Origin: Roseobacter ponti
GTDB lineage: Bacteria; Pseudomonadota; Alphaproteobacteria; Rhodobacterales; Rhodobacteraceae
Assembly: GCF_012932215.1 (NCBI RefSeq)
Contig: NZ_CP048788.1
Coordinates: 1,116,001-1,180,000, forward strand
Direction of reading: 5' to 3'
Length of the DNA: 64,000 nucleotides
Shown here: positions 52,048 through 64,000 of the stretch, piece after piece
How the letters are laid out: every line of letters starts with the position of its first letter
Position numbering within the stretch: position 1 is the first letter of the stretch
Translations under genes and position numbers: made by a program
The notes under the pieces: model-generated
Told to the model about the DNA's origin: nothing
Database searches by the model: none
What the model saw: only the letters and a program-made list of their open reading frames with translations

Positions 52048-52869
52048 TCAATCTCGAATGGCGATCGCATTCATCTTCGCGCGATGCCACGCCATCGGTG
52101 CAGCGTGATCATGGGACAGGGTGATGTGCGGCGCGGTGGTCAGACCCAGGGCCCGCACGCCTACCTCCGACAGACTTGGTGACGCGATGGCCTTACCATC
52201 GGCGTCAAAGCTGATCAGGAAGGCGTCGAAGGCGGCGTCCCAGTGGGCGGCCAGAAGCAGGCCGTTGAAGACGTCGAGCCGTTGCCTGTCGCTTTCGCAT
52301 TCGGCCCACGGCACAATGTGGCTGGCGCGCAATAAGGCGCGGTCGGTGATGCCGGTCAGGGGGCAGCGGCCGTTCCAGTAGTCATCGAGGGCGGCGCGGA
52401 AGGTGGACTGGCCGACGCGCAGGCGGACCTGCGCCTCGCGCGTCGTGGCGTTGGTGGGGTCGAGGTCCTGCGACGTCGGGCCGGACCATGTCTGTCCTTC
52501 GCGCTTCAGGTCAGCCTCGAAGGTGGCCTCGGGCGCATCGGGCAAGGCGCGGAACAGGTGCCAGGCGCGCAGGCAGGCAGTACGGAGCGTGATGATGGAC
52601 TCGAACCGCAGATGGTCAGTCTCCAGGGTGCCCAATCCCTCTTCGGCCAAACTGCGCAGCACACGGAGCGTAGTGCGCAGGGCGTAGCCGGGCGGCGCGA
52701 TGGCGAGGGCGATCTGGCCGGGGGCGTTCTGCGAGCGGAGCGTCATCCAGGGCGGATCGTCGAGCGCGGCTGGGATGGTGCCCTCGGGTTGCAGCGTCCA
52801 GCCGCCGTCATAGCCTGCCTTTTGCAGGATCAGCCGCGCGGGTCCTGGAGGATCGAGGTCGAAGCTCAC
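52048..52869 (-). CDS. HNH endonuclease (HNH_2 type)
   Basis: 273 residues. The N-terminal half (about 1-145) has no known domain. The C-terminal half is an HNH_2 domain: CPLTG (about 169), SHIVPW (His184), FNGLLLAAHWDAAFD (about 201-215), which together make the metal site and catalytic residues. It is the last gene of the island operon, starting four bases inside the methyltransferase gene. It is probably the DNA-cutting effector of the defence system, although in DISARM the nuclease-like subunit is a phospholipase D-type protein. Confidence 0.88.
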   Translation of the reverse strand: MSFDLDPPGPARLILQKAGYDGGWTLQPEGTIPAALDDPPWMTLRSQNAPGQIALAIAPPGYALRTTLRVLRSLAEEGLGTLETDHLRFESIITLRTACLRAWHLFRALPDAPEATFEADLKREGQTWSGPTSQDLDPTNATTREAQVRLRVGQSTFRAALDDYWNGRCPLTGITDRALLRASHIVPWAECESDRQRLDVFNGLLLAAHWDAAFDAFLISFDADGKAIASPSLSEVGVRALGLTTAPHITLSHDHAAPMAWHRAKMNAIAIRD

Positions 52870-62600: not shown

Positions 62601-64000
62601 CACGATGTGCGATGATCCGGGACAGCAGCACCTCAGCCTCAGTCGCTTTCCTTCCTCGAACATCATCTCGAAGCCATTCCTCGTGGCTTTCCTCGTTCGA
62701 CCAAGCATAGCCCAGAGCACGTCGAACCGCGTCTCCAAAATCACGACCAGCCAATCCGGCGCTACCGGCGTCGCGAACAGCCGCGAATATGGCAGAGCGC
62801 AGCTTCGTGACGAAAACGTGGTCATTGAAGTGACCGGCCTGCAAGGCCGCGTCCTGGCGGTTGTCGGTGAAGGTCAGCAGCTTGCCGCGCCCGGCTTCCC
62901 CGGCTTCCATTTCTTCAAGCGTTACCGAGTTCAGTATTGTCGTCGCCGAGGAGCGACCTTCGGCGGATAGGCCCGACAACCTGTTGCGATCCCGGCCTTG
63001 CCCCGGTGGCGTGTCTCCGCATCGCAGGCAGAGCGAGAATTTGCCTTTCATGAACCACATGCCAAGGCCGGCCCCCTCGACGCCCTGGGAATCGACCGAA
63101 ACCTCGAACGGGACGCGCGTGCGATAGGTCCGCTTGACGCGGGTCGAGCCGTTTGCCGTTTCTTCGAGCCAGGACGGCGGGAGATCTTGGTCGCCCTCGA
63201 AGGGCAGTCCTTCGGCACGGCACAGGAAGCCCGTCTCGTCGTCATCGTCGAGCGGCTCCTCGTCGATCGAGCGAGGGACATAGCGCCGCCCCGCATTATC
63301 CGGAAGCACCCGGACAGGGTGATAGTCCTGCCCACACTTGCGGCAGAAACGAACCTCGAACAGCCGCGCCTCGGCCTCTGGATCGGTCTTCTGCTTGTCA
63401 AAACGGATGGTCCGCGCACCCTCTGGACCAAGGGTCGCATACAGGCTGTCGGGACCGGACAGATATTGATGGAGCTTATACGCCAGGAAAGCACTGCCGG
63501 ATGGGCCCCCTCGCAGGTTCTCGGGCATCGAGGCCATGGACAACGCGTGCTCGAGCGCGGCCAGGCAATCCGGCACCGGTTCGCCGGAATCGTCAGCAAG
63601 CTCCAAGGCAGCTTCACTGAGCGTGCGCGGCTTGCGGCGTTGCGGTACTGGATCGTCGGTCAGGCCGATGCGAGTTTCAGCCCACACGATAAGCGGTTCC
63701 GTCTCGAGGGCGTCATTTGCCAATCCAGTGGGTAGCGTACGAATGGATTGCGCGATGCCCGTGCGATCCGCGGTGCCGCGCGTGGCGCGGACCAAAGTCT
63801 CGCCGATAACGGCTTCAGGTTCGATCCGGTTGCCGAAGATCATTGTCGCGGTATTCGCCACGACGACCGCAGGGTCTTCCGCGACCGCATCCGACGAGGC
63901 CATGGTGGCGGAGGTTCCGATGCACCGCAGATGGTCCGGAGACAGCCGGTCTCGCAAGCGTCGAACCAGCATCGCTACGTCCGCGCCCTGTCGGCCGCGA
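59623..64000 (-). CDS. YprA-type helicase with C-terminal DUF1998 zinc domain (partial)
   Basis: The frame is open through the window end; reading inward from it the codons give RGRQGADVAMLVRRLRD, the segment just before motif III, so the gene starts further right and about 1458 residues are visible. Motif III is GTSATMAS, then a CxxC (FCRKCGQDY), motif V/VI (SPTMELGVDISTLEHVHL, QRAGRAGRAGQ), then the DUF1998/MZB end with two zinc clusters: CANCGSIQ...CDAC and CVEGCYRCILTYF. This is the architecture of DrmA/DrmB-type and YprA-type helicases of DISARM and relatives. It is the first known gene of the operon, and overlaps the next by four bases. Confidence 0.88.
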   Translation of the reverse strand, partial: RGRQGADVAMLVRRLRDRLSPDHLRCIGTSATMASSDAVAEDPAVVVANTATMIFGNRIEPEAVIGETLVRATRGTADRTGIAQSIRTLPTGLANDALETEPLIVWAETRIGLTDDPVPQRRKPRTLSEAALELADDSGEPVPDCLAALEHALSMASMPENLRGGPSGSAFLAYKLHQYLSGPDSLYATLGPEGARTIRFDKQKTDPEAEARLFEVRFCRKCGQDYHPVRVLPDNAGRRYVPRSIDEEPLDDDDETGFLCRAEGLPFEGDQDLPPSWLEETANGSTRVKRTYRTRVPFEVSVDSQGVEGAGLGMWFMKGKFSLCLRCGDTPPGQGRDRNRLSGLSAEGRSSATTILNSVTLEEMEAGEAGRGKLLTFTDNRQDAALQAGHFNDHVFVTKLRSAIFAAVRDAGSAGLAGRDFGDAVRRALGYAWSNEESHEEWLRDDVRGRKATEAEVLLSRIIAHRVWTDQRRGWRFTNPNLEDLELVHVEYTMLSALAGEDAIFAGAPDVLRDATPEIRLTALRILLEHMRTGLAIDVEALDRQRFEEIAEESRRYLQAPWAIHEKERPREAAWLMLEGTSRANISLRDEGIVLRGSAQSALGKALVDERLWGRRLRRGEVTEVIEALLQATAHDDYAYVRAQRTPFGPMGWKLDPGALKLCAVSEPMAEETGKAPPNPYFRELYARVADNMLARRAPMRGLEAREHTAQVDKDIRQHRERRFRFGDDDQKQMRESPHDNETSRRLPLLICSPTMELGVDISTLEHVHLRNVPPTPANYTQRAGRAGRAGQAALITTYCAAQSPHDQYYFADPGQMVAGSVQPPLLDLGNEELVVSHCHAIWLAESGVELAPAIAEVLDLTQEDGKYPLRIEVAAALSVPDLAARAAERMVAVLSQIAGRPFGHDLAETTARDAYENFDTAFDSWRRRLSAAEDQRDRGYRLSKSTQASAEERRQGDRSYNSARRQIELLKSGKDSNSSDFFTYRYLATEGFLPGYNFPRLPLTAFVPGAERRGRGDFLSRARFLAISEFGPGSMIYHEGQSFRVTRAMLPPQVRAGDGVGLNTDVLLLCANCGSIQGTDAPERCDACGAGLADPIRLDGAFRVENVEAAPAERISANDEERQRQGFDIQTAFAFQGEPSRVRLSDRDGKDLAKISYGPRTRIARINKGLRRRRDKDLYGFKIGTHSGRWRGSVGGDETDPDSRPNAEPEQTVLPMVEDRKNAMLLVPSRHLDVEDVATLQSALARGLERVFRLEEGEIAVDPVPDRDARNGLLFYEASEGGAGVLSRISRQEDLQAVVRTALEVMHLEEAEGEWRDRDDAPCVEGCYRCILTYFNQPDHELIDRGRCEVRRFLIDLLSSEVEVVAPSGKVDAVESPISDGPWADAARRWGILRPDFEPVARGGKVALASWSKFYAAVTDDADVSAALSNEGYIVLRTVDPPEEMPEELAHIDRVTP

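What the first reader, a model, noticed from the sequence alone, without database searches (positions are those of the whole stretch)
52048..64000. Four-gene defence-like operon: YprA/DUF1998 helicase, SNF2 helicase, Eco57I-type methyltransferase, HNH nuclease
All four genes run on the minus strand and are joined by 4-bp overlaps (59623-59626, 56861-56864, 52866-52869), so they make a single functional unit. Large YprA-type helicases with DUF1998, SNF2 helicases and adenine methyltransferases are the core of DISARM, and similar helicases occur in Druantia, Dpd and more recently described relatives. The classic DISARM PLD protein DrmC is not seen; an HNH_2 nuclease takes the last place. This may be a DISARM-like variant where an HNH enzyme cuts unmodified DNA. 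The helicase seems to carry both DrmA-like and DUF1998 (DrmB-like) parts in one chain.
Basis: partly seen in the sequence, partly recalled or inferred. Interest (0 to 1): 0.88.

Follow-up and report, generated by a model that had tools for sequence, protein, structure and literature searches.

The report
ARMADA defence operon with swapped nuclease
A mobile bacterial operon that looks like the recently named anti-virus system ARMADA, in which the DNA-cutting part usually fused to the big helicase appears to have decayed and a separate HNH nuclease gene, inherited together with the helicases, probably does the cutting instead.

Summary
The four-gene minus-strand operon is real: four-base overlaps, intact catalytic motifs in all four proteins, and a helicase gene that ends 701 bp past the window. 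It is not DISARM. Gene content and order (DruE-like YprA helicase, BrxHII/DrmD-like SNF2 helicase, PglX-like methyltransferase) match ARMADA Type I (Bell et al. 2025 preprint), on a 19.9-kb integrase island with a perfect 50-bp repeat at tRNA-His. Two features are not in the preprint text I searched. (1) An HNH gene is a regular operon member: 65 of 66 resolved loci in this system's clade carry it. (2) The Vsr-type nuclease fused to the helicase, described there as predicted active, has apparently lost its active site throughout that clade (alignment evidence; no structural proof). Over 97 resolved loci: Vsr-lost with/without HNH 66/3; Vsr-intact with/without HNH 7/21. Relatedness leaves about three independent contrasts, so correlated loss is not proven. 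HNH distances track the helicases (r 0.89-0.93) but not the methyltransferase's C-terminal specificity region (r 0.11), which argues against a cognate site-specific enzyme. Best reading: helicases and methyltransferase choose the DNA, and a trans-acting HNH cuts it. Defence activity is untested.

The parts
59623..64000 (-). YprA/DruE-like SF2 helicase with MZB/DUF1998 (ARMADA ArmC-like); 1692 aa; gene continues 701 bp past the window end (genome 1180701)
59626..60018 (-). last 131 aa of the helicase: from the DUF1998 CYRC cysteines to the end, with the apparent remnant of the Vsr/DUF559-type nuclease domain (DGxH motif absent; intact relatives have 149-165 aa here)
   Evidence: alignment, tails, lengths; no nuclease Pfam match here or in 5 other tails of the clade; DUF559 or MTES_1575 in 5 of 5 intact relatives scanned
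56861..59626 (-). SNF2/RapA-like BrxHII/DrmD-like helicase (ARMADA ArmA-like), 921 aa; 4-bp overlap with the YprA gene
52866..56864 (-). PglX/DrmMI-like N6-adenine methyltransferase (ARMADA ArmB-like), 1332 aa; TTG start; C-terminal part hypervariable
52048..52869 (-). HNH_2 nuclease, 273 aa, with an own N-terminal domain of about 120 aa; 4-bp overlap with the methyltransferase gene
51723..51799 (+). tRNA-His(gtg), integration site of the island
51750..51799 (+). attL: 50-bp perfect direct repeat (tRNA 3' part); its copy attR is at genome 1187649-1187698, beside a tyrosine integrase gene, to the right of the window

Best explanation
It is a mobile ARMADA Type I-like restriction operon in a variant I call HNH-ARMADA. 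SHOWN by sequence: operon structure, intact ATPase, methyltransferase and HNH motifs, absence of the active-site motif of the fused Vsr-type domain, deep conservation and co-inheritance of the HNH gene with the helicases, rapid replacement of the methyltransferase C-terminal region, and a tRNA-His island with integrase. INFERRED: the methyltransferase marks host DNA at a site set by its variable C-terminal region; the YprA and SNF2 helicases engage unmarked incoming phage DNA and translocate on it; the HNH protein docks on the helicase complex, probably through its N-terminal domain, and makes the cut that the fused Vsr domain is thought to make in other ARMADA systems. Betaproteobacterial systems with both an intact Vsr and an HNH show that the two can coexist, the kind of state from which Vsr could be lost; they are a sister group, not the ancestors.
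For: Gene set and order as in ARMADA Type I; the reversed order reported for cyanobacteria was seen in 3 of 3 cyanobacterial plasmid loci read here. In a 30-row tree the YprA groups with such systems, apart from the E. coli ATCC 8739 ARMADA II ArmC and Druantia III DruE (100% SH-aLRT, but the two outgroup branches are long). DGxH absent here and in all 70 rows of its clade, tail 122-149 aa (median 128) against 149-165 (median 158) in 33 intact rows. HNH in 65 of 66 resolved rows of that clade, against 33 of 66 for the SMC-like ATPase accessory and at least 7 of 66 for DUF262. Mantel r: YprA-HNH 0.90, BrxH-HNH 0.93 (63 loci); YprA-SMC 0.56 on 28 loci where HNH gives 0.91. MTase C-terminal region against HNH r 0.11, partial given YprA 0.04; MTase N-terminal part and core against YprA 0.95 (60 loci). 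Against two close relatives (89-91% in the YprA) the MTase C-terminal blocks drop to 41-72% before a conserved last block. Full-length HNH relatives: 4 of 4 in 385 genomes lie in or beside this operon or its remnant. HNH H184, N202 and D211 invariant in 25 of 25 aligned rows.
Against: No experiment. The Vsr/HNH association (Fisher p 2e-12) is inflated by shared ancestry: 3 independent pairs on supported branches, sign test p = 1. Three Vsr-lost loci have no HNH: L151 (IS21 right after the MTase), L158 (Streptomyces; motif altered but D and H kept), L159 (Chlorohelix; an EVE-domain gene there, nearest HNH_2 about 93 kb off). L029 (G322) may be a fourth: operon cut, no full-length HNH in its genome. 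Seven Vsr-intact loci do have HNH. Loss of Vsr activity rests on alignment: the same motif and Pfam tests also find no Vsr in E. coli ARMADA II ArmC, a type whose Vsr the preprint calls predicted active, and the fold search with my C-terminal model shows no match recognisable as PD-(D/E)XK among the 50 listed. The MTase C-terminal alignment is gappy (2439 columns), which lowers r; partial correlation of HNH with the MTase N-terminal part is 0.37, so HNH is tied to more than the helicases. The role of the HNH N-terminal domain is a guess.
Confidence: 0.7

Rival explanations
1. The HNH is the cognate restriction enzyme of the methyltransferase (Type II-like R-M pair) and recognises the unmethylated site itself; the helicases are a separate module.
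For: HNH overlaps the MTase gene by 4 bp in 16 of 62 loci measured in the clade; PADLOC type II REase and HNH models match the HNH domain.
Against: HNH divergence does not follow the MTase C-terminal specificity region (r 0.11, partial 0.04) but follows the helicases (r 0.89-0.93). In 27 of 62 loci the HNH starts 1.8-2.1 kb after the MTase end.
Confidence: 0.14
2. The HNH is a modification-dependent (Type IV-like) backup enzyme that attacks modified phage DNA and merely shares the operon.
For: Closest solved structure is the EVE-HNH enzyme VcaM4I (6yex), next TagI (6ghs, E 0.035). GmrSD-type DUF262 genes recur nearby.
Against: Sequence similarity to VcaM4I covers only residues 141-264; Pfam finds no EVE or SRA domain in the protein; it is nearly constant in the operon.
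Confidence: 0.1
3. A DISARM variant with HNH in place of DrmC.
For: DrmD-like SNF2 helicase and DrmMI-like MTase.
Against: DruE-like not DrmA-like helicase; DrmD cut-off missed; no separate DrmB; no PLD match among the neighbouring genes scanned.
Confidence: 0.03
4. Not a restriction system: a DNA-repair or plasmid-competition operon using the same enzymes.
For: YprA relatives (MrfA) work in DNA repair (PMC12458937, Introduction); no phage test of this variant is known to me.
Against: Patchy distribution (7 of 385, 14 of 398 and 11 of 394 genomes), carried on an integrase island and on plasmids, and gene content of a class of which a Type II member was tested against phages (PMC12458937).
Confidence: 0.05

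Closest known systems
ARMADA Type I (Bell et al. 2025, bioRxiv, PMC12458937)
   Same: YprA-like helicase, then BrxHII-like helicase, then PglX-like methyltransferase; YprA related to Druantia DruE; extra CxxC motifs.
   Different: Fused Vsr active site apparently lost in this clade; an HNH gene added as a near-constant member. In the preprint's main text 'HNH' occurs once, in the reference list (word search). Read: abstract, Introduction, Results parts 1 and 2 of 3, figure legends; supplements not readable.
ARMADA Type II (tested in E. coli in the same preprint)
   Same: ArmA, ArmB and ArmC of E. coli ATCC 8739 are homologues of the three large proteins (blastp E 2e-39, 7e-24 and 8e-29).
   Different: Gene order BrxHII, MTase, YprA, then GajB/UvrD-like ArmD; no ArmD found here.
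Druantia III (DruE/DruH)
   Same: Homologous helicase (DruE; blastp E 1e-24).
   Different: No DruH found; has SNF2 helicase, methyltransferase and HNH.
DISARM
   Same: SNF2 helicase and adenine methyltransferase relatives (DrmD, DrmMI).
   Different: Helicase and DUF1998 fused, DruE-type; no DrmB or DrmC gene found.
VcaM4I EVE-HNH endonuclease (6yex; PMC7897488 seen in search listing only)
   Same: HNH catalytic domain.
   Different: No EVE domain found; other N-terminal domain.
BREX-related (BR) systems with compensatory nucleases (PMC12839542: abstract, outline and passages)
   Same: General theme: helicase-fused nuclease in most loci, other nucleases nearby in the rest.
   Different: DUF499-centred systems; the words YprA, DUF1998 and ARMADA do not occur in its text.

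Membership tests
ARMADA Type I | YprA-like helicase of the Druantia/ARMADA branch | tested here: met
   DruE models 290 bits against DpdJ 88 and DrmA 52; tree with E. coli ArmC and DruE, only two outgroup rows, long branches
[quoted passage not shown]
   blastp to E. coli ArmA E 2e-39 and ArmB E 7e-24
ARMADA Type I | gene order YprA, BrxHII, MTase | tested here: met
ARMADA Type I | C-terminal Vsr nuclease predicted active (as described in PMC12458937) | tested here: not met
   DGxH absent and tail shortened; no DUF559/MTES_1575 match. The same tests miss the Vsr of E. coli ARMADA II, so this is alignment evidence within Type I, not proof of inactivity
ARMADA Type I | BrxA-like insertion after RecA1, MarR-like and beta-barrel zinc modules in RecA2 | tested here: inconclusive
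   CxxC pairs at 453 and 558 fit a zinc module; N-terminal 1184 aa not modelled
ARMADA Type I | placement in the published ARMADA Type I clade with its reference accessions | not tested
   reference WP_108720193.1 was not looked for in the collections
ARMADA Type II | GajB-like helicase ArmD last | tested here: not met
   no UvrD-like match among the genes scanned; the operon ends with HNH beside tRNA-His
DISARM | DrmA-type helicase with separate DrmB (DUF1998) gene | tested here: not met
DISARM | DrmD above curated cut-off | tested here: not met
   294.8 bits against 610
DISARM | DrmC phospholipase-D-type nuclease | tested here: not met
   none among the neighbouring genes scanned
Druantia | DruH (type III) or other Dru partner genes | tested here: not met
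   no such match in the PADLOC lists shown for the four genes, P0005 and P0006 (two of the lists are cut at the best 25)
Type II R-M | REase specificity matched to MTase specificity | tested here: inconclusive
   HNH does not co-vary with the MTase C-terminal region; no biochemistry

The most novel reading that the evidence does not exclude
ARMADA's nuclease is an exchangeable, sequence-blind module: a separate HNH joined systems that still had the fused Vsr nuclease, then took over as Vsr decayed in a clade now spread over several phyla, while targeting is reset by swapping only the methyltransferase's C-terminal region with helicases and HNH unchanged.
Probability: 0.47. Interest if true: 0.72.

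Novelty: new variant of a known kind. Interest (0 to 1): 0.6.

Why it matters
How ARMADA, DISARM and Druantia tell self from foreign DNA and what actually cuts the phage genome is unsettled. This variant separates the parts naturally: a helicase whose own nuclease looks dead, a separate cutter that can be removed on its own, and a methyltransferase whose specificity region evolves independently. That makes three questions directly testable: which protein cuts, what sets the target, and whether specificity can be changed without touching the nuclease. It would also mean that a description of ARMADA Type I as three genes with a fused active Vsr nuclease misses a large branch of the family.

Tried and rejected
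DISARM membership: rejected on helicase type, DrmD cut-off and lack of DrmB/DrmC.

First version of the idea, strict mutual exclusion of Vsr and HNH: rejected. After cut loci were extended, seven Vsr-intact betaproteobacterial loci proved to carry HNH; the claim was weakened to 'Vsr-lost systems nearly always have HNH'.

Statistical proof of correlated loss: not obtained. The independent-pairs test has 3 pairs on supported branches and p = 1. In the first tree Vsr loss looked like two separate events; with plasmid loci added the two clades became sisters (support 94), so perhaps one event plus L153 (Hydrogenimonas), L158 and L159.

DUF262 gene (P0005) as a core member: rejected. Not found in the loci of the two closest relatives (tblastn), and a DUF262 gene was seen in only 7 of 66 clade loci (a lower bound, extension loci not counted). 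SMC-like ATPase as a partner that HNH needs (Septu-like pair, recalled): rejected as a general rule, since HNH occurs without it here and no such gene was detected in 33 of 66 clade loci.

Structural proof of the Vsr remnant: not obtained (model mean pLDDT 75; no match recognisable as PD-(D/E)XK among the 50 listed).

Gene-calling faults: greedy longest-ORF picking first hid the HNH in L048 under an opposite-strand ORF; corrected by tblastn and a profile. One search read a gapped copy of P0002 and gave no SNF2 hits; corrected. L084, L096 and L113 have an opposite-strand ORF listed between MTase and HNH, possibly of the same false kind; all three were counted as HNH-positive. L102, L116, L118 and L127 (4.3-4.7 kb) and L106 (about 6.7 kb) have the HNH further after the MTase and were counted as positive.

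Relatives in the phage collection: no match.

On the required check of the report two odds were lowered slightly (best explanation 0.72 to 0.70, novel case 0.50 to 0.47) and one rival raised (Type II-like pair 0.13 to 0.14) because of L029/G322 and the E. coli ArmC control.
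Full report
1. Observation. The four minus-strand ORFs and their 4-bp overlaps are as described. The genome record shows that the helicase gene ends 701 bp beyond the window (1692 aa). All four proteins keep their catalytic motifs. A GmrSD_N/DUF262 gene (678 aa) lies 123 bp upstream on the same strand.

2. Mobile context. tRNA-His(gtg) lies at 51723-51799. The last 50 bp of that gene recur perfectly at genome 1187649-1187698, next to a tyrosine integrase gene (409 aa). 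The operon therefore sits in a 19.9-kb integrated element; P0006 inside it has a weak primosomal-protein match (E 3e-4).

3. What the proteins are. Helicase: DruE-type (PADLOC 290 bits), not DrmA-type (52 bits); the best PDB matches of the C-terminal model are MrfA (6znp) and DrmAB (7s9v), although the model is of middling confidence (mean pLDDT 75). SNF2 protein: DpdE/DrmD/BrxHII-like, under the curated DISARM DrmD cut-off. Methyltransferase: DrmMI/PglX-like. HNH: HNH_2, catalytic domain like VcaM4I, confident model (mean pLDDT 89.9), N-terminal domain with no clear match. The gene set and order are those given for ARMADA Type I in PMC12458937 (read: abstract, Introduction, Results parts 1 and 2 of 3, figure legends, word searches).

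4. Relatives. YprA searches gave 7 of 385 genomes of the class, 14 of 398 of the phylum and 11 of 394 of the family, own genome included. A plasmid search found 71 records, of which I read 18 places. A phage search found none. Six duplicates were dropped (L030, L040, L046, L071, L141, L146), leaving 119 loci in the census. Loci without a usable YprA gave no row; of those with one, L033, L063, L066, L081, L087, L117, L120 and L148 were left out as fragments or truncated. L047, an HNH look-alike locus without the other genes, was not used; in the 59 close relatives searched, HNH matched 3 genomes: own, G023 (in this operon) and G032 (weak, E 8e-7, that locus).

5. Vsr loss. In 33 intact rows the helicase tail (149-165 aa from the DUF1998 CYxC motif) carries a DGxH motif; 5 of 5 such tails scanned match DUF559 or MTES_1575. 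Ours is 131 aa and lacks the motif, and neither it nor five further tails of its clade match a nuclease family; nor do L153 and L159. The preprint describes the C-terminal domain of ARMADA I and II as a predicted active Vsr nuclease. Control against over-reading: the same motif and Pfam tests also find no Vsr in E. coli ATCC 8739 ARMADA II ArmC, so the inference rests on the within-Type-I alignment, where the stretch holding D and H is missing, and not on the Pfam result.

6. HNH as a core gene. On a tree of 106 helicases (quick LG+G4 search, SH-aLRT support) all 70 rows of the clade containing ours lack DGxH. Of 66 with resolved downstream DNA, 65 have the HNH gene, 33 an SMC-like ATPase accessory and at least 7 a DUF262 gene somewhere in the locus. 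The HNH overlaps the methyltransferase gene by 4 bp in 16 of 62 loci measured and starts 1.8-2.1 kb after it in 27 of 62. Outside that clade HNH occurs in 7 Vsr-intact loci of one betaproteobacterial clade and in L153, which lost Vsr separately. In 385 genomes of the class a profile of the HNH family found 4 full-length members (E <= 1e-25): 3 in this operon and 1 (G100) beside a 63-residue SNF2-helicase remnant. In the same sample G322 carries a Vsr-lost YprA (L029, operon cut at a contig end) but no full-length HNH was found in its fragmented genome; if counted as negative the figure is 65 of 67.

7. Association and its limits. Over 97 resolved rows: Vsr-lost/HNH+ 66, Vsr-lost/HNH- 3, Vsr-intact/HNH+ 7, Vsr-intact/HNH- 21 (Fisher p 2e-12); 9 rows are unresolved. 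These rows are related: the independent-pairs test has 3 pairs and is not significant. What is solid is retention (65 of 66 over a deep clade) and co-inheritance, not repeated correlated loss. By record titles the Vsr-lost, HNH-bearing rows come from Pseudomonadota, Myxococcota, Acidobacteriota, Verrucomicrobiota, Nitrospirota and Bacillota, several of them metagenome-assembled genomes.

8. Mechanistic clue. Pairwise distances of the HNH follow the helicases (with YprA r 0.90, with SNF2 r 0.93, 63 loci). On 60 loci with long methyltransferases, the methyltransferase N-terminal part and core also follow YprA (0.95) and HNH (0.90), but its C-terminal region follows neither (0.11 with YprA, 0.11 with HNH, partial 0.04). 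Partial correlations given YprA are 0.58 for HNH-SNF2 and 0.37 for HNH-methyltransferase core. Against L048 and L140 (89% and 91% identical in YprA) methyltransferase identity falls to 41-72% in the C-terminal blocks and is 84-89% again in the last block. The specificity region is thus replaced often while HNH and helicases stay, which is hard to reconcile with an HNH that reads the same site by itself and fits an HNH that cuts where the complex brings it. That the C-terminal region is the specificity region is inferred from its place after the NPPW motif and its variability. Steps shown: anatomy, motif loss, retention, co-variation. Steps inferred: docking, cleavage, self/non-self rule, phage defence.

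9. Novelty. I found no paper that ties an HNH gene or Vsr loss to ARMADA in the search listings, in the word search of PMC12458937 or in the passages of PMC13192584. The library lacks most subscription papers, part 3 of the preprint's Results was only word-searched, and supplements could not be read. PMC12839542 (abstract, outline, passages) reports compensating nucleases in DUF499-centred BREX-related systems, a precedent for the theme, not for this system.

Noticed in passing
L002:14825-16861 (-), genome 1180825-1182861, just right of the window: GmrSD_N/DUF262 gene (PADLOC HEC-05-like) 123 bp upstream of the helicase gene; related DUF262 genes sit just before HNH in L050, L051, L096, L165 (extends L028), L170 (extends L107) and L172 (extends L089).
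   Followed up: partly
L170:12332-16183 (+): A 1283-aa reverse-transcriptase protein (RVT_1) lies inside an ARMADA operon of a Comamonadaceae bacterium, between the SMC-like ATPase and DUF262; a similar-sized gene (1325 aa, not scanned) stands there in L171.
   Followed up: no
45 census loci, e.g. L049 after the methyltransferase gene: An SMC/DUF2326-like ATPase of about 655 aa is a frequent ARMADA accessory in Vsr-intact (10 rows) and Vsr-lost systems; the L049 copy has a Walker A motif and a CPICEVPI cysteine motif.
   Followed up: partly
L155 (Nocardioides sp. JS614 plasmid pNOCA01): Annotated DrmA/DrmB genes, an ARMADA Type I operon and an AAA ATPase/McrC pair stand side by side on a conjugative plasmid.
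   Followed up: no
L156 (Deinococcus radiodurans R1 plasmid MP1): ARMADA Type I genes with the methyltransferase annotated in two pieces and an IS630 element beside it.
   Followed up: no
L159:26089-28743 (+) (Chlorohelix plasmid): Vsr motif lost and no HNH nearby; an EVE-domain protein with a weak HARE-HTH match follows the methyltransferase and may be another effector.
   Followed up: no
L166:10028-11203 (+): A YhcG/DUF1016 PD-(D/E)XK protein sits between the SMC-like ATPase and HNH in a Polyangiaceae ARMADA operon.
   Followed up: no
L198:7788-8945 (-): Relic of an ARMADA operon: an HNH gene beside a 102-aa ORF with a 63-residue match to the SNF2 helicase; no YprA or methyltransferase match in the 19.9 kb read.
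   Followed up: yes
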